This document shows, piece by piece, positions 11,326-23,567 of a DNA stretch of 64,000 nucleotides. This DNA comes from Candidatus Dadabacteria bacterium (lineage in GTDB: Bacteria; Desulfobacterota_D; UBA1144; Nemesobacterales; Nemesobacteraceae), in NCBI GenBank assembly GCA_022827275.1, contig JAJDTG010000020.1, forward strand, positions 124,001 to 188,000. The letters are read 5' to 3'. The translations under genes and the position numbers were made by a program. How positions within the stretch are numbered: position 1 is the first letter of the stretch; the number at the start of each line of letters is the position of its first letter. Under the pieces are notes generated by a model, which saw only the letters and a list, made by a program, of their open reading frames with translations, did not search any database and was not told where the DNA came from.

Positions 11326-11559
11326 ATGCCTGTTGTTAATGTTCACCAAGCTAAAACTCATCTGTCCAGGCTTCTGACGCAGGTCGAGGCGGGCGAGGAA
11401 GTCGTGATCGCCCGCAGGGGGGAACCAGTTGCGCGACTTGTCGGCTGCAAACCCAGAGGCAAGCGGCAGCCTGATGTCCTCAAGGGAAAGATTGTCCTGC
11501 CGGAGGATTTTTTCGAGCCACTGTCGGGGGATGAGCTAGGAGCTTGGGAGGGAAAATAG
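11326..11559 (+). CDS. Phd/YefM-family antitoxin
   Basis: A 77-residue Phd/YefM antitoxin. The DNA-binding N-terminal half reads [33 protein letters not shown]. The C-terminal tail, which normally wraps the toxin, includes [14 protein letters not shown]. It is paired with the PIN toxin that starts 2 bp after its stop. A promoter with TTGACT near 11266 and TATATT near 11288 lies in the spacer after tRNA-Gln, and autoregulation is expected for this family. Confidence 0.9.
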   Translation: [77 protein letters not shown]

Positions 11560-11561
11560 CG

Positions 11562-11948
11562 TTGCGGGCATTGCTGGACACCCATGCTTTTCTTTGGTGG
11601 CTTGCAGACAGTGGGCGCCTGTCCAACCCGGCGCGCCGGATGATTGCGGACGAGGGAAACGACATTCTTGTCAGTGCGGCGTCTGCTTGGGAAATTACTA
11701 CCAAGTACCGGCTCGGCAAACTGCCTGAAGGTGCCGTGGCGGCCTTTGATGTTGTCGGCAACATTGCTCGCCAAGGTTTTCGGGAACTCATGATCAATGT
11801 TGCCGATGCCGAACGTGCCGGCTTGCTGCCTGGCCCGCATCGCGATCCGTTCGACCGCATGCTCATTGCTCAGGCTTTAGCGCGCGATTTAGTGGTTGTG
11901 TCGGCTGATGCGGTGTTTGACCGGTATGGAGTCAATCGATTGTGGTAG
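11562..11948 (+). CDS. PIN-domain toxin (VapC type)
   Basis: A PIN ribonuclease-like toxin of 128 residues. Acidic metal-binding residues are visible in LLDTHAFLWWL (D near residue 6), ASAWEI (E near 44), DPFDRMLIAQAL (D near 92) and VVSADAVFDRYG. The frame is open from TTG 11544, but TTG at 11562 gives the canonical MRALLDTHAFLWW start and has GGGAGGG about 10 nt upstream. Such toxins cleave tRNA or rRNA when the antitoxin is lost. All four acidic sites are intact, so this pair looks functional. Confidence 0.92.
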   Translation: MRALLDTHAFLWWLADSGRLSNPARRMIADEGNDILVSAASAWEITTKYRLGKLPEGAVAAFDVVGNIARQGFRELMINVADAERAGLLPGPHRDPFDRMLIAQALARDLVVVSADAVFDRYGVNRLW

Positions 11949-13991: not shown

Positions 13992-14873
13992 ATGGAAGTT
14001 TTTGAAGCAATGGGCACCAGGAGAAGTTTCCGGTTCTACAAGCCCTGGAAAGAGGTTGAGGACTGGAAGATACAGAAGATGCTCCAGGCGGCGCGCTACT
14101 GCTCCTGCCAGGGCAACTGCAACTCGACCGAGGCGATAGTTATAGACAAGAGGACCTATCCTCCCGAGAAGTTCGAGAAGATAGTTGAGTGCGGATCCGC
14201 GTTTAACGAGATTCACCTGCGCCAGGCCCCGATTATCGTGGCGTGGCTCATAAACATGGACGCCTGGTACAAGGAGCTCATACAGACCTTCCAGGTGCTG
14301 TTTCCCGCAAGGGCCATAACCGCGGCCCACGGCTGGACATACAAGATACTGACCGAGACCACCTATCCGAGGCTCATGAGCTTTCCAAAGGACAGGGCGG
14401 AGGATCTCCTCAGGGTCGAGGCGGGCCAGGCCATAGCGAACGCCATGCTCGCGGCCACCGACATGGGACTCGGATGCTGCCTTATCGCCACGGGGAGAAA
14501 GCCGGCGGAGTTCCCGAAGGTTCTCGGGACTCCCGAGAACATAGTCCCCATCTGGCTCATGACGGTTGGATACCCGGCCGAGGACCCCGGGCAGAGGCCG
14601 AGAAAGAGGTTCGACAGGCTCTATCACTCAAACGAGTACGGAACTCCGCTTGCGGAGGACCAGGACGTGCGGGGGGAGCTTGAGGAGGAGAAGCTTATAC
14701 AGCCCATGGACCCGCTTCCCGGAAGGGAGGAGGAGCTTCGCCACATATGCAGGATGTTCGGCTTCACGGAAGACATGTGCGACATGCCGAAAGAGAAGGT
14801 TCTCGAGATGTACGAGGAGGACTCTCCCTATTACGGAGAACTTCCCCCGGGTCTTGAGGAAAGGGGAGTCTGA
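13992..14873 (+). CDS. Nitroreductase-family flavoprotein with C-terminal extension
   Basis: A 293-residue protein. The nitroreductase fold opens with FEAMGTRRSFRFYKPW, an FMN phosphate-binding pattern, and continues to AMLAATDMGLGCCLIA and the closing WLMTVGYPAEDPGQRPRKRFDRL near residue 205. About 80 further residues make a charged tail. Unusual features are a C-x-C-x3-C cluster (residues 37-43) and a cysteine pair in the tail (HICRMFGFTEDMCDM). The reaction is unknown. An ATG with AAGGAGGG upstream fixes the start. Confidence 0.85.
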   Translation: MEVFEAMGTRRSFRFYKPWKEVEDWKIQKMLQAARYCSCQGNCNSTEAIVIDKRTYPPEKFEKIVECGSAFNEIHLRQAPIIVAWLINMDAWYKELIQTFQVLFPARAITAAHGWTYKILTETTYPRLMSFPKDRAEDLLRVEAGQAIANAMLAATDMGLGCCLIATGRKPAEFPKVLGTPENIVPIWLMTVGYPAEDPGQRPRKRFDRLYHSNEYGTPLAEDQDVRGELEEEKLIQPMDPLPGREEELRHICRMFGFTEDMCDMPKEKVLEMYEEDSPYYGELPPGLEERGV

Positions 14874-14892
14874 GCTCTTATATATAATAAGG

Positions 14893-14946
14893 AAAAGGGC
14901 GCGGCTGCCTTCTGGGTCTCTTCCGAGGGGGGGCCGCGCTTTTTTA
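14893..14946 (+). terminator. Intrinsic terminator after the nitroreductase gene
   Basis: GCGCGGC (14899-14905) pairs with GCCGCGC (14933-14939), followed by six T. The loop is 27 nt. It ends three bases before the displaced cytochrome c 3' end. Confidence 0.8.
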
Positions 14947-14948
14947 GG

Positions 14949-15037
14949 CTACTGCTTTTTGTACTCGCACTTGCAGAGGTTCTGCCTTATGTGCGCCACC
15001 ACGTTGTCTATGTCCTCGGGGCTTATTATCCCGGCCC
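14949..15037 (-). pseudogene. Detached 3' end of a cytochrome c gene
   Basis: On the minus strand this segment encodes AGIISPEDIDNVVAHIRQNL plus a CKCEYKKQ end and a TAG stop. It repeats the end of the intact cytochrome c gene at 19228-19605, with one amino-acid change inside the repeat and one extra residue at the end. No cytochrome c sequence continues upstream of it. The two copies bracket the NTPase cassette. Confidence 0.9.
14959..15037. repeat. 79-bp direct repeat, copy A
   Basis: Matches 19235-19313 in the same orientation with a single mismatch (C at 15008 against T at 19284). It runs from TTGTACTCGC to TATCCCGGCCC. Both copies lie in the 3' end of a cytochrome c coding sequence. Confidence 0.95.
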
Positions 15038-15160
15038 GATGACGGATTTGAGGAGGCGATCGACGGACTTCGCCACAGACATGTCCTTGGGGCGAAATGC
15101 GATGAGTGGCGGTGGCTACGCTTTGAGTGCGGTGATAGAATCTTCCGTGGTCCACTGTAG
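15038..15160 (+). pseudogene. C-terminal fragment of an unknown gene
   Basis: Immediately after repeat copy A an open frame of 40 codons runs to TAG. It reads DDGFEEAIDGLRHR, then GAKCDEWRWLRFECGDRIFRG. It has a protein-like composition (WRWLRFECGD) but no start codon, as if the recombination junction cut off its 5' part. I do not recognise the family. It is the only gene trace between the repeat and the promoter of the NTPase pair. Confidence 0.4.
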
Positions 15161-15170
15161 CAATAAAAAT

Positions 15171-15215
15171 TTTGCCAAAAAATCTATTGCCAAAAAATCC
15201 CTTGTCATGTATTCT
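15171..15215 (+). promoter_or_regulatory. Promoter with iterated TTGCCAAAAAATC boxes
   Basis: Two near-identical 14-mers, TTTGCCAAAAAATC (15171-15184) and ATTGCCAAAAAATC (15186-15199), repeat with a 15-bp period. The second contains the -35 hexamer TTGCCA (15187-15192). A 17-nt spacer leads to TATTCT (15210-15215). A regulator bound to the boxes would sit on the -35 region. GGGAG about 10 nt before the 15250 start is the ribosome site. Confidence 0.6.
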
Positions 15216-15249
15216 GTTTTTCATCCTGATCTGAACGGGAGTCAAGCGA

Positions 15250-16461
15250 ATGCGAAACATTACGGGACAAGCGGTAATCGGCGAAGACCTCTACGGACGA
15301 GAATCCGAACTGAAGTTGTTATGGGAAAAACTGGAACAGGGTGAGCATGTTCTGATGCTTGCCCCGCGACGGGTCGGAAAAACCAGCCTCATGTTGGAAC
15401 TTCGTCGTGAACCTCGGCAAAACTGGGATGTCTTTTATGTGGATGTTGAAGGCGCCGAAGATCCGGCGGATTGCTTGGCGGCGATTGTCGCCGCCTTGGC
15501 GGTGAACCCGGAGTATCGCCGGGGCATCGAAAAAATTCCGTTCGCAAAGATCGTCACGGACGCGCTCAAGAGCATATTTTCCTTCTCTGAAATTTCCATC
15601 AGCACAGAAAAACTCCGCATTGAACTCAAAAGGGCGATCGGTCGGGACTGGAAACGCACGGAGGACCAGCTTCTTGAACGTCTTGAGAGTCTGCCGGGCC
15701 CCGGTCGCAACCTCCTGATCATCCTCGACGAATTTCCGATACTCGTCTCGCGCATGCTGAAAGCCCCTGGAGGAAAAGATGATGTCGAGCTGCTGCTGTC
15801 CGGGCTCCGACGCTGGCGTCAGTCTCCAAAGATACGCGGGAAGGTGCGCACGCTGATCGGCGGATCCATCGGGCTTGAAGGCATTCTCAGGCGCGTCGCT
15901 CTTCCGGGATTAATAAATGATCTGGCTCCGTTCCAGCTAGATTCATGGAACCGGGATGTCGCAGTTAAGTTCCTAGAGGAGCTTGGAGACAGTTATGACT
16001 TCCGTGTGGACGAACGCGGCGTCTCGCAAATTCTCGACCTCCTCTCGGACCCGGTCCCCTATCACCTGCAACTGTTTTTTTCGACCCTTCGCCAATACTG
16101 CAATGAGGGTCCCTCGCGCGTTTCCGAAAGCGTAATAGAGCGATGCTTCACGGAAAGGCTTGCGGGACCTGTAGGAACGCCTTATCTTGACCATTACGCG
16201 GCCCGCTTGGAAATCATGCTCGACGCAGACGAGCGGGAAGCGGCGCACGACATACTCAATCACGCCTGTCGGCGGAGAGACGGCGCGCGCATCTCGGATA
16301 TCGAGGAACTGACCCGGCAGGGCGAAAGCGTGTTTCTCTCGGCGCTTCGCAATCTGGAATCGGACGGGTACGTGCGGCGGGACGGCTCCTATGTGTCTTT
16401 CAGATCGAATCTGCTTAGGGAGTGGTGGCGGAAAAACCGGTCAGCGGGGATGGAGCCATGA
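15250..16461 (+). CDS. Archaeal-type P-loop ATPase (first gene of two-NTPase cassette)
   Basis: A 403-residue ATPase of the archaeal ATPase/Orc-like STAND-related group. A short N-terminal YGRESELKLLWEKL box precedes Walker A LAPRRVGKTSL (near residue 40). Walker B is NLLIILDEFPIL (near 160), with a sensor region RTLIGGSIGLEG. A C-terminal winged helix (about 330-400) ends in VSFRSNLLREWW. It has no membrane segment or nuclease domain. Its TGA overlaps the ATG of the next gene (ATGA), so the two proteins are made together. Its role is unknown; a sensor or switch NTPase in defence is an inference from architecture. Confidence 0.8.
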   Translation: MRNITGQAVIGEDLYGRESELKLLWEKLEQGEHVLMLAPRRVGKTSLMLELRREPRQNWDVFYVDVEGAEDPADCLAAIVAALAVNPEYRRGIEKIPFAKIVTDALKSIFSFSEISISTEKLRIELKRAIGRDWKRTEDQLLERLESLPGPGRNLLIILDEFPILVSRMLKAPGGKDDVELLLSGLRRWRQSPKIRGKVRTLIGGSIGLEGILRRVALPGLINDLAPFQLDSWNRDVAVKFLEELGDSYDFRVDERGVSQILDLLSDPVPYHLQLFFSTLRQYCNEGPSRVSESVIERCFTERLAGPVGTPYLDHYAARLEIMLDADEREAAHDILNHACRRRDGARISDIEELTRQGESVFLSALRNLESDGYVRRDGSYVSFRSNLLREWWRKNRSAGMEP

Positions 16462-19217
16462 AGCAAAGACGTATCTACAACACGGCCCAACTCTCCCCGG
16501 ATGAACTCAAGGCTTCCTTCGTCGCCCGTCAGGAAACCCTCACCGAGATGCTTCGCCTTCTGGGCGAGCAGAACCCCGACCGGCCGTGCCAGCACATGCT
16601 GCTTGTCGGCTCGCGGGGGATGGGCAAAACCACCCTCGGCCTGCGGTTTCTCCAGGCGGTACGCGAAACGCCCGATCTTGCAGAAGCATGGCAGCCGGTG
16701 GCGTTTCACGAGGAAAGCTATCAGGTGACCGACCTGGCGGATTTCTGGCTTACGGCCCTGCATCACCTGACCCGCGCCACTCGGGATTCCCGGTGGGAGG
16801 ATAAGGCAGAAGCGCTTTTGGCCGACGAGAAGGATCCGCAGCGCCTTGCCGCGTACGCGCTTTCGGCCCTTATTGATTTCTGCCGAGAAAGCGGAAAGAG
16901 ACTGATTCTGTTTGTCGAAAATCTTGACATCGTTTTCTCACAGCTGGGTGATGAGCGCGAAGTCCACGCGTTGCGGGCTTCGCTGATCGAACATCCGGAG
17001 ATACTGCTGATCGGTTCCGCAAACGCTGTCTTCGAGGCCATATGGCACCGCGGCGAACCGTTCTATGAGTTTTTCCGGGTTTTTCTTCTGGAAGGTCTTG
17101 GATGCGAAGAGTATCTTCAGATCTTCCGAGCCCTAGCGGAACGTGAAGGCAAAACTGAAATCGCCGAGACACTGAACCGCGAACGCGGGCGAATCGAGGC
17201 CATACGCCGCCTGACCGGAGGCAACCCGCGGCTGCTGGTGCTGACCTACGGAATCCTGATTGAGTCGCCGCTCGGTTCCGCATTCAAGGACTTGGAACAG
17301 CTGATCGACGAACAGACTCCGTACTTCAAATCCCGCGTCGAGGAACTGCCGACACAGTCCCGAAAGGTGTTTCACTGCCTCGCAGAGGGATGGAATCCCA
17401 TGCTCGCAAGGGAAGTATCCGCCGCGACCAGGCTTTCCTCATCGCACACGAGCGCCCAACTCAGGCAGCTGGTGGACAGGGGGTACGCCAGGGAAGCGCG
17501 GTTAGAGGGGGAGAAGCGGGTCCGGTACGAGGTTGCCGACCGATTCTACAACATCTACTTCCTGCTGCGTTTCTCCCGGCGGGGATATCGACGCCTGAAG
17601 CTGCTGGTAGCTTTCCTAAACGACCTGTTCGGCCCGGTTCCGATGCGGTCGATGTATCTGGCAATTCTTGAGAGATTAGGCAGCGGAGTCTCTGAAGATG
17701 GAGAGGGGCCTGAATTGCTAGGGGCTCTGGTCCCCTACGTGATGAATGACAGTGGTTTCTCAGAACGCGAAGACTGGTTGAAGAAGGCCTTTAACCTGAT
17801 AATCAGTTCTATCGGAGCGAACGGCGCGGACGTGTCGGCCTTTGGCGAGATAGCACGGGATCTTTCCCGGCGGTACCAGTTAGATTTAGATTACTTTTCG
17901 GATGAGGTCTGTCGCGGCATCGAACTACTCCAGTCTGGGCGTTTCACAGAGGCGGAAACCGAATGCAGAGAGGCAATCAGGCGAGAACCGGAGAATCTTT
18001 TTGCTTGGGTTCTTCTTGGCTTAGCACTAAGGGGAAGAAGGCATTTTGAGAATGCCTTGGATGCGTTCAGGCATGTAACCGAAGCTGTTGGTCCCGATGA
18101 CGCCGCATGGTTGCGGGCCTGCGCACTTGTAGCTCTGACGGGAGAGGCCAGAGCCCTTTTCGCTCTGGAAAAACCCGACGACGCCTTAAGCGTTATCAGA
18201 AAAATTCCGGAACTTGCAGGGCAGGACGACCCGCGTTTCCTACGCTATGCAGCTGCTGGCTCGCTTCAGCTTCTTGGCGAATCTCTCTCGGAAACGGATC
18301 ATCACGAAGAAGCTCTCGCGACCTGGCGGCAAGCCTCGCAATATGTCCGCCCGGACGATCCGCAATGGGTGCGCCTGGTACTTATAAAGACGCTTGCCAA
18401 GAGAGGAAACACCCTTTTCGCGCAAAAGCGTCATGATGAAGCTGTCTCCATTCTGGAAAGCTTCACTCAATATGTTCGCACCGATGACCCTACAACATTA
18501 CGTTACGGTGCCGGTCTGGCGTTGTTTGCTCTGGACACCGCATATCTGGAGCTGGGGCGGTTTGAAGACTGGATCGGGTCCTGCGTCCTGTTTTCAGAAT
18601 ATATTCATATGGACGACCCGGCAGATACGCGTCGGAAATTCGCTAAGCTGCTGGCCATCAGGAGCAATATTGCCAACCTGCTGGGATATTATGACAACTC
18701 GGAATCGGGCTGCAAAAAGGCAATAGAACTCGACCCCGAGTGTGGTGAGGCCTGGCGCGCGGGGGCGGAAGCGATTCTCAGAAGCGACAACGCTGCGCGC
18801 TTGGAGGAAGCGGAACGTTACGCTTGCCGCGCGGCGGAACTGATACCGGAGGACCCTGCCGCGTTTCATACGGTTTCCGATGTACTGGCCCGCCGCGGGA
18901 ACTGGATGGCAGCCCTGGAAAAACTTGACCGTGCGCTTTCCGTCGCCGGCGACCAGCAGTGCTGGAACACGTATGGTCTGACGGAATCTCTGATCAATCT
19001 CGCGGCGGCCGGCTGGAGCCCACAGGTAAGGCAGATAATGGAAAGCCATCCTGCCCTGACCGAAACCATGGAACCGCTCTGGCACGCGGTGCGGGCGGAA
19101 ACGGGCGAGGAACTCGAATCCCTGCCCGCGGAAATCACTCAAGCCGTAACAGATATAAGGAAGAAGTTCTCGGAGAAAAAAAAGATGTTGGCGGGAACAG
19201 CGGCGCCGTCAAGCTGA
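16458..19217 (+). CDS. STAND-like NTPase with winged helix and TPR array (second gene of cassette)
   Basis: A 919-residue protein, starting at ATG 16458 inside the ATGA overlap. An N-terminal P-loop NTPase has GSRGMGKTTL near residue 52, Walker B-like RLILFVENLDIVF near 153, and GSANAVFEA with LTGGNPRLL, as in STAND ATPases. A winged helix (about 300-365) follows. The C-terminal half is a TPR array with ELLQSGRFTEAETECREAI, AWVLLGLALRGRRHFENAL and further repeats to about residue 880. P-loop plus winged helix plus repeats is the layout of NLR-like sensors. No effector domain was seen, so if it acts in immunity the partner ATPase or an outside effector must carry out the response. Confidence 0.82.
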   Translation: MKQRRIYNTAQLSPDELKASFVARQETLTEMLRLLGEQNPDRPCQHMLLVGSRGMGKTTLGLRFLQAVRETPDLAEAWQPVAFHEESYQVTDLADFWLTALHHLTRATRDSRWEDKAEALLADEKDPQRLAAYALSALIDFCRESGKRLILFVENLDIVFSQLGDEREVHALRASLIEHPEILLIGSANAVFEAIWHRGEPFYEFFRVFLLEGLGCEEYLQIFRALAEREGKTEIAETLNRERGRIEAIRRLTGGNPRLLVLTYGILIESPLGSAFKDLEQLIDEQTPYFKSRVEELPTQSRKVFHCLAEGWNPMLAREVSAATRLSSSHTSAQLRQLVDRGYAREARLEGEKRVRYEVADRFYNIYFLLRFSRRGYRRLKLLVAFLNDLFGPVPMRSMYLAILERLGSGVSEDGEGPELLGALVPYVMNDSGFSEREDWLKKAFNLIISSIGANGADVSAFGEIARDLSRRYQLDLDYFSDEVCRGIELLQSGRFTEAETECREAIRREPENLFAWVLLGLALRGRRHFENALDAFRHVTEAVGPDDAAWLRACALVALTGEARALFALEKPDDALSVIRKIPELAGQDDPRFLRYAAAGSLQLLGESLSETDHHEEALATWRQASQYVRPDDPQWVRLVLIKTLAKRGNTLFAQKRHDEAVSILESFTQYVRTDDPTTLRYGAGLALFALDTAYLELGRFEDWIGSCVLFSEYIHMDDPADTRRKFAKLLAIRSNIANLLGYYDNSESGCKKAIELDPECGEAWRAGAEAILRSDNAARLEEAERYACRAAELIPEDPAAFHTVSDVLARRGNWMAALEKLDRALSVAGDQQCWNTYGLTESLINLAAAGWSPQVRQIMESHPALTETMEPLWHAVRAETGEELESLPAEITQAVTDIRKKFSEKKKMLAGTAAPSS

Positions 19218-19227
19218 TAAACTCCCC

Positions 19228-19605
19228 CTACTTCTTGTACTCGCACTTGCAGAGGTTCTGCCTTATGTGCGCCACCACGTTGTTTATGTCCTCGGGGCTT
19301 ATTATCCCGGCCCAGGCGGTCATCATCGGGGATTTGCCGACTGCCGCTCCGCCGTTTGTTATCACGTTAACCAGGTACTCGTCCGTGTAGGTCTCGAGGA
19401 TCGCGGCGCTCGAGAGATCCCTCGGCTTGGGGTCAAGAGCGGCGGACGCGATTCCGTCGCCAAGCCCCGTGGGGCCGTGGCAGGTAGCGCAGTAGGTGGT
19501 GTAGATTTCCTGTCCCTTAACGCTGTCGGCCGCCCGGGAGGGTATGGCCGCAAAAAAGAGCGCGCAGGAAAGAACAAGCGTTGCTAGCGGGATTCCGTTT
19601 TTCAT
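19228..19605 (-). CDS. Small exported c-type cytochrome
   Basis: A 125-residue monohaem cytochrome c. A signal peptide (1-25, ending SRAAD) is followed by the haem site CATCHGPTGLGDG and a probable axial methionine in KSPMMTAWAG. The C-terminus is unusual, with CKCEYKK as a second cysteine pair. It probably carries electrons in the periplasm. The convergent NTPase gene ends only 10 bp from its stop, and its 3' end is duplicated 4.3 kb away. Confidence 0.93.
   Translation of the reverse strand: MKNGIPLATLVLSCALFFAAIPSRAADSVKGQEIYTTYCATCHGPTGLGDGIASAALDPKPRDLSSAAILETYTDEYLVNVITNGGAAVGKSPMMTAWAGIISPEDINNVVAHIRQNLCKCEYKK
19235..19313. repeat. 79-bp direct repeat, copy B
   Basis: The partner of 14959-15037, with one mismatch. 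This copy is continuous with the intact cytochrome c gene. The second NTPase stops 17 bp before it. Confidence 0.95.
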
Positions 19606-22109: not shown

Positions 22110-23567
22110 ATGAGGTTATTTAACTTCTTTGCAATAATGTTCTTGCTGGTGGGGGCGTTGGCTTTTTCTTCCTGCACGGACACGGAAACTGTAACGGAAA
22201 CTGTAACGGAATACGTGTGTGCTGACGGAACCACAGCGACCAGCGCCGACATGTGCCCGGATCCGGAGCCTGTTTATGACGAGATAGGGCCGGGTTTTGA
22301 GGTAGGAGGAATGGAGTGCTATGAGGACGGTGACCGCGACGGCATGATAGCCGGTACCGAGATGGGCGATTGTATCAAGGGCGAGGGGGGCAACGACTCC
22401 ATTAAGGGCATGGGTGGCAACGACTCTCTTGACGGAGGCCCAGGAAACGACACGCTCTACGGGGGGGCCGGCGATGATGAACTTATCGGTGGCAGCGGCA
22501 ACAACATGCTCCACGGGGGTGAAGGCGCCGACATTGCGGTCTACAAGGATGCTATAAGAGTAGTGGCCGACCTGAGCAAAAACCAGGCCAATGTTCGGCA
22601 CGCCATGCCTGAAGAGGTAGACGAACTCGGGTTTGAGCAGGGAGATAGCGGAACAGGTATGGATACCTTGATGGAAATCGAGAATGTCAAGGGCAGTCTC
22701 CTCGGAGTGGACATACTAACCGGCGATGACGGTGACAACGTGCTTAAAGGTCTTGACCAAGCCGACACGCTTAACGGCGGCGCGGGCGATGATACACTTC
22801 TCCCCAACCGTCCTGCGGAAGTGGACGCCATGGGTGATCCGATTGCTAATGTGGCAAGCGGCACAGCTCCAGAAACAGACGGCGTTGATAATGTCGACGG
22901 GGGAGAGGGGAACGACACCATAAGCTATGAAGGCGAAAGTAGCGGGGTGACCGTTGCCCTTGCCGTTATTACACCCCGGGCGGACGGCGATGACGGTACC
23001 CCCAACACTGCCGACGATATCCCTGCTCATGTTGCGGCCACGGTTAGTGGCGTTGCTGACAGGATTGCGATTGTGAATCGAGGCACGGCAGAGGAACCGG
23101 ACAACGAGAGCACCATTGAGAACGTTACGGGAGGCTTCGGTGGCGACACGCTTACTGGTGACGATCGGGACAACGTGCTTACAGGCGGTGCCGGTGGCGA
23201 CACGCTTAACGGCGGTGACGGTAACGACACGCTTAACGGCGGCGTGGGCGTTGATACGCTTACAGGCGGTGCCGGTAACGACAGGCTTGACGGCGGTGAC
23301 GGTAACGACACGCTTAACGGCGGTGACGGCAGTGACCAATTTATTATCACCAAAGGCGATAGCGGCGATACGATCAGCGAGTTTGCGGAAGGCGACAGGA
23401 TAATTCTGAAGGGCTTCGGGGGCAATGGCAATGTGAATCTAAAGATAGATGGAACATTGCTTCAGGATGTGGACCCGGATGACTCGAATGTTACTACTAC
23501 ACTTGTCACCATTACTACCGGCGCGAATCTGATCCGGTTGACTCAGGACATAGGTTACGTGGACTGA
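22110..23567 (+). CDS. RTX (Ca2+-binding repeat) lipoprotein
   Basis: A 485-residue acidic protein. The N-terminal signal ends in the lipobox LAFSSC (Cys near residue 22), so membrane anchoring is expected. A low-complexity TETVTETVTEY stretch follows. Two blocks of hemolysin-type nonapeptides (GGxGxDxxx), about 95-145 and 345-410, should fold as Ca-loaded beta-rolls, e.g. GGAGNDRLDGGDGNDTL. The tail, ISEFAEGDRIILKGFGG, matches the usual cap after RTX repeats. RTX proteins are normally secreted by type I systems, and a lipobox is unusual. No transporter is adjacent. No catalytic domain was seen, so it may be an adhesin or surface-layer protein. Confidence 0.85.
   Translation: MRLFNFFAIMFLLVGALAFSSCTDTETVTETVTEYVCADGTTATSADMCPDPEPVYDEIGPGFEVGGMECYEDGDRDGMIAGTEMGDCIKGEGGNDSIKGMGGNDSLDGGPGNDTLYGGAGDDELIGGSGNNMLHGGEGADIAVYKDAIRVVADLSKNQANVRHAMPEEVDELGFEQGDSGTGMDTLMEIENVKGSLLGVDILTGDDGDNVLKGLDQADTLNGGAGDDTLLPNRPAEVDAMGDPIANVASGTAPETDGVDNVDGGEGNDTISYEGESSGVTVALAVITPRADGDDGTPNTADDIPAHVAATVSGVADRIAIVNRGTAEEPDNESTIENVTGGFGGDTLTGDDRDNVLTGGAGGDTLNGGDGNDTLNGGVGVDTLTGGAGNDRLDGGDGNDTLNGGDGSDQFIITKGDSGDTISEFAEGDRIILKGFGGNGNVNLKIDGTLLQDVDPDDSNVTTTLVTITTGANLIRLTQDIGYVD

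What the first reader, a model, noticed from the sequence alone, without database searches (positions are those of the whole stretch)
14949..19313. Two coupled NTPases in a cassette bracketed by a 79-bp repeat of a cytochrome c 3' end
Seen: 14959-15037 and 19235-19313 are direct repeats with one mismatch; both encode the last residues of the same cytochrome c. Only copy B is joined to the whole gene. Between them lie an ATPase and a STAND-like NTPase with TPRs, coupled by ATGA, under one promoter. Known: elements that integrate into gene ends carry a replacement 3' end and leave the old one detached. The tail codons differ between copies, as expected if one came with the element. No integrase is present. 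Inference: this is a mobile, possibly defence-related, two-component NTPase module with a sensor (winged helix plus TPR) and a partner ATPase, and no recognised effector.
Basis: partly seen in the sequence, partly recalled or inferred. Interest (0 to 1): 0.85.

Follow-up and report, generated by a model that had tools for sequence, protein, structure and literature searches.

The report
Paired ATPase cassette in gene-swapping hotspot
A Dadabacteria genome carries a probable two-protein molecular switch in a spot where close relatives carry other, mostly defence-like genes, and the repeated gene end beside it looks more like a scar of such a gene swap than the mark of a classical mobile element.

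Summary
The repeat is real: 86 bp, 3 mismatches (14952-15037 and 19228-19313). Both copies are the 3' end of one cytochrome c gene. Named same-genus relatives are Candidatus Dadabacteria MAGs.

Among 13 genomes of the genus, the gap between cytochrome c and the convergent nitroreductase is empty in 3 and occupied in 10. Five carry this ATPase pair. Others carry a Schlafen/AlbA_2 protein, with or without a TrlF-family ATPase. Two kinds of cytochrome c end occur: one precedes the old terminator, one travels next to NTP2. They swap places between genomes, so the attached end here probably arrived with the cassette. Boundaries differ between genomes, and in three the nitroreductase end is duplicated. 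One joint shows 9 bp of microhomology. I saw no integrase. One-sided homologous exchange fits somewhat better than integrase targeting, but the delivery route is unknown (no ComEC in 9 genus genomes).

The pair is a genuine module: 17 of 18 genomes with gene 1 have gene 2 beside it (the 18th is cut by a contig end). Gene 1 always has Walker-B "DE"; gene 2 always has "[E/D]N". Several operons share repeated dyad operators. Function is untested; a self-regulated ATP switch, possibly in defence, is my best guess.

The parts
14952..15037 (-). Detached copy A: terminator-side 3' end of the cytochrome c gene (28 codons, ends KKQ-stop)
14885..14948 (.). Original intergenic/terminator-like region; directly follows cytochrome c in empty-site relatives
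   Evidence: the scan found one terminator-like stem at 14915-14935, about what shuffles give (mean 0.6)
15038..15249 (+). Right-end segment with the NTP1 promoter; remains, whole or in part, in G002, G008 and G012 that lack an intact pair at this site
15172..15199 (+). Two exact iterons TTGCCAAAAAATC at 15-bp period, overlapping the promoter
15187..15215 (+). Sigma-70-like promoter TTGCCA-17-TATTCT
   Evidence: consensus match only
15250..16461 (+). NTP1: 403-aa P-loop ATPase, ATPase_2/SSO1545-like; Walker A RRVGKTS, Walker B DE (codons 15727-15732)
16458..19217 (+). NTP2: 919-aa AAA_16/STAND-like NTPase, winged helix, TPR; Walker A RGMGKT, Walker B EN (codons 16917-16922); ATGA overlap with NTP1
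19228..19313 (-). Attached copy B: cassette-type 3' end of cytochrome c (ends KK-stop)
19228..19605 (-). Cytochrome c gene, intact, left anchor of the hotspot
13992..14873 (+). Nitroreductase-family gene, right anchor; its 3' end is the one duplicated in G007, G010 and G011

Best explanation
The site between the convergent cytochrome c and nitroreductase genes is a cassette-exchange hotspot of this Dadabacteria genus. Incoming chromosomal DNA recombines homologously in one anchor gene and is joined illegitimately, by short homology, at its other end. The anchor gene stays whole because the incoming DNA carries its 3' end, and the resident 3' end is left detached: this makes the 86-bp repeat (inferred from comparison). 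The cargo here is a two-ATPase module. I propose that NTP2 is a STAND-like sensor (TPR) that binds ATP but hydrolyses it poorly, that NTP1 is the hydrolysing partner, and that a winged helix of one of them represses the operon's own promoter at the repeated operators until a trigger is sensed (inferred). Defence against phages or other invaders is the likeliest role (inferred).
For: Empty sites G004-G006, 75-80 bp between the two stop codons. Different cargoes at one site: pair in G000, G001, G007, G010, G011; SLFN_AlbA_2-HATPase in G002 and G012 by Pfam, in G008 and G009 by similarity, and the start of one in G003; TrlF in G012 with remnants in G003. Two tail types: the NTP2-side type is attached in G000/G001 and detached beside NTP2 in G007/G011, where the terminator-side type is attached (G010's contigs break here). 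The detached tail of G001 is closest to empty-site G004 (76/79; own attached copy 73/79). Joints at different places: cytochrome c codon ~98, nitroreductase codons ~177 and ~239. Microhomology of 9 bp at the G007 joint (random-joint P about 1e-4) and 7 bp at a G008 deletion (P about 0.003). Module: 17 of 18. Walker B: DE in 14 of 14 NTP1, [E/D]N in 16 of 16 NTP2; dN/dS 0.15-0.33. Operators: CAACA-N4-TGTTG in 7 of 16 upstream regions, from 4 genera.
Against: ComEC was found in 0 of 9 genus genomes searched, against 5 of 5 other genomes of the order, so natural transformation is not supported and the delivery route is unknown. The detached tail of G002 is equally close to its own attached copy and to G004 (75/79 each), and those of G000, G008 and G012 are not closest to an empty-site species. 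Only one exchange joint could be tested for microhomology. The detached nitroreductase ends of G007, G010 and G011 are closest to their own subclade, so that step could be an internal rearrangement. G000, G001 and G002 share one codon-98 joint, so it counts as one event. Outside the genus several pairs sit beside metabolic genes. No effector domain is recognised. The AlphaFold models are unusable (mean pLDDT 38.6 and 47.8). Asn in Walker B does not prove loss of hydrolysis.
Confidence: 0.5

Rival explanations
1. Site-specific integration: the cassette is, or derives from, an element whose integrase (lost, or acting in trans) targets the cytochrome c 3' end; the repeats are attL and attR.
For: The anatomy (restored gene, detached old end, empty sites) is what such elements leave. 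The codon-98 joint is shared by G000, G001 and G002. The genome has three tyrosine-recombinase matches elsewhere.
Against: No integrase seen in the inserts whose ORFs I listed. Joints vary and also occur in the nitroreductase gene. Fixed differences between the attached gene of the clade and the other five genomes begin upstream of codon 98, from codons 31-40 on, although faster evolution of the clade could explain this.
Confidence: 0.25
2. One old insertion followed by vertical descent, deletion and slippage-type rearrangements; no current exchange of cassettes.
For: The eight genomes with the right-end segment fall together on the flank-gene tree, apart from the empty-site species. G002, G008 and G012 keep scars of the pair. 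The detached nitroreductase ends are closest to their own subclade.
Against: Cargo types do not follow the tree simply: AlbA_2 in distant G003 and G009 and in G002, G008, G012. G010 gained a further unrelated cargo.
Confidence: 0.2
3. The pair is not a defence system but an NTP-dependent transcription or stress regulator.
For: Winged-helix hits, repeated operators at the promoter, PhyH and mandelate-racemase-like neighbours at a stable place in the G167/G304 genus.
Against: Patchy presence (6 of 16 genomes of that phylum), decay in G288, defence-like cargo at the same site in the window genus, a Qat gene near the pair on a Moraxella plasmid, NTP2 alone beside Pycsar genes on a Sphingobium plasmid, and a type I restriction gene near the pair in G167.
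Confidence: 0.3

Closest known systems
Homology-facilitated illegitimate recombination and orphan 3' arrays (Vibrio cholerae T6SS immunity genes, PMC5361080; passages read)
   Same: Conserved anchor on one side, new module inserted, old 3' gene displaced and kept
   Different: Here the displaced piece is the 3' end of a cytochrome c (or nitroreductase) gene, and ComEC was not found in the genus genomes searched
Integrase-free hotspots exchanged through flanking core genes (Oliveira et al. 2017, PMC5635113; passages read)
   Same: Variable cargo between conserved genes, no mobile-element genes seen
   Different: That model is double homologous recombination; here one side looks illegitimate and leaves a scar
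ATPase_2 / SSO1545-like ATPases (PDB 2qen, 2fna; the name SSO1545 is recalled)
   Same: NTP1 P-loop region matches by profile
   Different: NTP1 is below the Pfam gathering score (19.4 against 33.2) and is paired with NTP2
STAND NTPases with C-terminal repeats, such as Avs proteins (recalled, no call)
   Same: NTP2: NTPase, winged helix, TPR superstructure
   Different: No N-terminal effector; Walker B [E/D]N; a partner ATPase beside it in most genomes
PADLOC candidates mad8, PDC-S27, PDC-S01
   Same: Weak NTP1 hits (E 9.4e-6, 8.3e-4, 0.005)
   Different: Partial P-loop matches only; NTP2 hits nothing

Membership tests
Integrase-type element at a gene 3' end | Gene restored by the element, old 3' end detached at the far side | tested here: met
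Integrase-type element at a gene 3' end | Own integrase or recombinase | tested here: not met
   none seen in the cassette or in the relatives' inserts listed (by eye); PF00589 matches of this genome lie on other contigs; relatives' genomes were not searched with PF00589
Integrase-type element at a gene 3' end | Constant attachment core across insertions | tested here: not met
   joints at cytochrome c codon ~98 and nitroreductase codons ~177 and ~239
Homology-facilitated illegitimate recombination | Homologous anchor at one end | tested here: inconclusive
   attached gene of the clade has fixed differences from the other genomes between codons 31 and 110; donor not known
Homology-facilitated illegitimate recombination | Short microhomology at the other end | tested here: met
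   9 bp in G007; only this exchange joint could be tested with both parents
Homology-facilitated illegitimate recombination | Uptake of linear DNA (natural competence); described also in conjugation (abstract start of PMC3240628) | tested here: not met
   ComEC PF03772 in 0 of 9 genus genomes, 5 of 5 others of the order; other entry routes not tested
STAND NTPase (NTP2) | P-loop NTPase followed by winged helix and repeats | tested here: met
   AAA_16 40.6 bits against cut-off 32.6; HTH_IclR 22 at cut-off 22; TPR_2 53.4 against 27
STAND anti-phage effector protein | N-terminal effector domain | tested here: not met
   NTPase match starts at residue 21; no other domain
STAND anti-phage effector protein | Anti-phage activity | not testable with these tools
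   needs a phage challenge
ATPase_2 (PF01637), NTP1 | Pfam gathering score | tested here: not met
   19.4 against 33.2 bits; related by profile only
Known defence system in PADLOC | Full-length match of either protein | tested here: not met
   only partial weak hits to NTP1, none to NTP2

The most novel reading that the evidence does not exclude
A previously undescribed, phylum-crossing two-ATPase switch: a STAND-like sensor whose Walker B always lacks the catalytic glutamate works with one hydrolysing ATPase, and the pair represses its own promoter through repeated dyad operators (CAACA-N4-TGTTG type) until an invader is sensed. In this genus it spreads without an integrase, by one-sided recombination that leaves displaced housekeeping-gene ends as datable scars.
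Probability: 0.2. Interest if true: 0.75.

Novelty: new variant of a known kind. Interest (0 to 1): 0.5.

Why it matters
Hotspots without integrases are common (27% of hotspots lacked any of the mobility proteins searched for in PMC5635113, passage), and how their cargo is swapped is poorly documented. This locus keeps the scars: detached gene ends that record which side recombined and where. The ATPase pair is conserved as a unit across phyla with an unusual asymmetric Walker B, and has operators that make a simple test of autoregulation possible.

Tried and rejected
Assembly artefact: rejected, because related but different arrangements recur in separate assemblies. Tail repeat as an intrinsic part of the module: rejected, no bracketing direct repeat of 40 bp or more at 7 pair loci outside the window genus (the repeats found in three of them lie within NTP2 or away from the pair). 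Repeated element around the genome: the right-end segment matched only this locus in G000. Compositional foreignness: GC of the cassette is like the flanks. Virus-borne: no match in 50,697 phage records, and no confirmed relative in two pattern scans of viral contigs. Plasmid search: NTP1 in 1 record, NTP2 in 8. Of the 8 I read 5; NTP1 lies beside NTP2 in the 2 Moraxella ones, not in the Sphingobium, Agrobacterium and Mycobacterium ones. In the 386-genome search NTP2 also occurs without NTP1 in G291 and, as a fragment, in G173. Structures: both models too poor to compare, so no fold search and no complex model were run. Literature for the pair: searches (listings, and passages of PMC7159879) gave nothing that matches; the library is partial. 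Searches gave background only (76 listed PMC5635113). The order of events at the hotspot (AlbA_2 before or after the pair) could not be settled.

Weak rows: CAACA-N4-TGTTG was chosen after seeing the sequences; it was absent in 9 of 16 upstream regions, the window's included. The 15-bp period was the sole best in 13 of 20 regions; at most 5 of 200 mononucleotide shuffles reached its score in 9 of 20, all nine from two genera. An earlier count of tail identities included bases outside the tail; one search repeats it trimmed. That recount weakened the claim that detached tails resemble empty-site species (clear only in G001), so I lowered the best explanation from a planned 0.55 to 0.5 and the novel case from 0.22 to 0.2, and raised the integrase rival from 0.22 to 0.25.
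Full report
What is there. The window lies in a 1.77-Mb genome in 25 contigs (G000). The habitat was not established. The reported repeat is correct: 86 bp with 3 mismatches, found only at these two places in the genome. Copy B ends an intact cytochrome c gene; copy A is a detached end followed by the stretch that faces the convergent nitroreductase gene. Between them are NTP1 and NTP2, overlapping by ATGA.

The same place in relatives. Of 13 genomes of the genus (G000 included), three are empty: the cytochrome c and nitroreductase stop codons are 75-80 bp apart (G004, G005, G006). Five carry the pair, 86-91% identical to the window's in the other four (G000, G001, G007, G010, G011; in G001 and G010 the locus is spread over contigs). 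G002, G008 and G009 carry a Schlafen AlbA_2 plus HATPase_c_4 protein (Pfam on the G002 copy; the others 99.5% and 84% identical to it). G012 carries such a protein with a TrlF-family ATPase (509.7 bits, cut-off 350) and a 3' remnant of NTP2. G003 shows TrlF remnants and the start of AlbA_2 before its contig ends. G010 has a further insert with a metallo-beta-lactamase-fold protein and two ORFs without a Pfam match. The next gap in G011 holds ShosA and ShosT matches (2.8e-94 and 3.5e-47) and a nucleotidyltransferase with its partner. I read this as a hotspot of mostly defence-like cargo.

Origin of the repeat. There are two kinds of cytochrome c end. One is followed by the old intergenic stretch; the other is followed by the NTP2 end. 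In G000 and G001 the NTP2-side type is attached and the terminator-side type is detached. In G007 and G011 the terminator-side type is attached and the NTP2-side type is detached next to NTP2; in G010 contigs break inside both ends, so its state is unseen. So the NTP2-side end travels with the cassette. Whether detached tails resemble the pre-insertion gene is less clear. Trimmed to the tail, G001's detached copy is closest to empty-site G004 (76/79, own attached copy 73/79), G002's ties (75/79 each), and those of G000, G008 and G012 are not closest to an empty-site species. In the window genome the detached copy is identical over 80 bp to the attached copy of G002 (78/80 to its own), perhaps through gene conversion. 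In G007 and G011 the last 354 bp of the nitroreductase gene are present twice; in G010 a different, 168-bp 3' duplication is seen. The G007 joint has 9 bp common to both parents (random-joint frequency about 1e-4); G008 has, relative to G002, a 71-bp deletion between 7-bp identities (about 0.003). Varied joints fit recombination anchored on one side and illegitimate on the other better than a single attachment core. Against this, ComEC was found in 0 of 9 genus genomes searched, so how DNA enters is open. An old integrase event for the codon-98 joint shared by G000, G001 and G002 is not excluded.

The pair elsewhere. With an NTP1 profile, 13 of 386 genomes had a match at E <= 1e-30 (34 of 386 at the looser 1e-8, the rest mostly short P-loop matches). 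Searches of 16, 3 and 5 genomes of three further phyla added G389, G392, G393, G396 and G401. An NTP2 profile finds NTP2 directly downstream on the same strand in 17 of these 18; the other, G246, is cut by its contig end. Ten of the 17 were rows of that profile, and G010 and G011 are near-identical to one. G389, G392, G393 and G396 (same genus as two rows; 1e-152 to 3e-156) and G401 (9.3e-71) were not. NTP2 matches in 15 of 386 genomes: 12 beside NTP1, G288 beside an NTP1 remnant, G291 alone, G173 a fragment. G288, of another phylum, holds a decayed pair whose NTP2 is 69% identical over residues 3-409, which suggests transfer between phyla. In G142 a RelA/SpoT-domain gene lies directly upstream of NTP1; a possible effector, seen once.

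How it may work. NTP1 has Walker A RRxGK[TS]S and Walker B DE in 14 of 14 sequences. NTP2 has Walker A RGxGK[TS] in 16 of 16 but Walker B [E/D]N in 16 of 16 (each set includes three rows from the window genus's locus and two Moraxella rows). Both evolve under purifying selection in the genus (dN/dS 0.15-0.33 for three genomes). I infer an asymmetric pair: NTP2 binds ATP and senses through TPRs; NTP1 hydrolyses. Upstream of NTP1 the window has two exact TTGCCAAAAAATC iterons at 15-bp period over the promoter, kept with changes in G001, G007, G010, G011 and G288. The distant copy in G012, four species of the G167 genus, G206 and G365 have CAACA-N4-TGTTG dyads (7 of 16 regions); other inverted repeats occur in G246, G401 and a Moraxella plasmid. 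I saw no separate regulator gene that travels with the pair, so self-regulation through a winged helix is the simplest reading. None of this is shown experimentally.

What is known. Displacement of 3' genes by anchored illegitimate recombination has been proposed for T6SS immunity arrays (PMC5361080, passages), and integrase-free hotspots exchanged through flanking genes are described (PMC5635113, passages). The definition of homology-facilitated illegitimate recombination is from the abstract start of PMC3240628 in a listing. NTP1 relates by profile to PDB 2qen and 2fna. Neither protein has more than P-loop, winged-helix, TPR or other short segment matches in Pfam, PADLOC, NCBIfam or PHROGs. 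Verdict: a real and well-preserved hotspot scar with a conserved, uncharacterised two-ATPase module; a new variant of known kinds, not a new kind of mobile element.

Noticed in passing
window 11544-11948: A lone PIN-domain gene (Pfam PIN), matched at 95% identity only in G008 among the loci compared; another variable spot near the hotspot.
   Followed up: no
L059:12935-15481 (G011): ShosA/ShosT-like pair and a nucleotidyltransferase with its substrate-binding partner between SDR and nitrilase genes; in the window these two genes are only 65 bp apart.
   Followed up: partly
L130:8573-10319 (G288): Decayed copy of the pair in a genome of another phylum, NTP2 69% identical over residues 3-409, NTP1 internally deleted, with similar upstream iterons.
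   Followed up: partly
L128:5118-5810 (G142): RelA/SpoT-domain gene directly upstream of NTP1 on the same strand; possibly an effector of the pair in that genome.
   Followed up: no
window 22110-23567: Glycine/aspartate-repeat ORF that looks RTX-like by eye, variable between relatives (segments 29-68% identical), near mutS.
   Followed up: no
genus genomes G000-G008: ComEC (PF03772) found in 0 of 9 genomes although 5 of 5 other genomes of the order have it.
   Followed up: partly
L050:348-765 (G003): TrlF gene with what looks like an internal deletion, beside AlbA_2 at the same hotspot.
   Followed up: no
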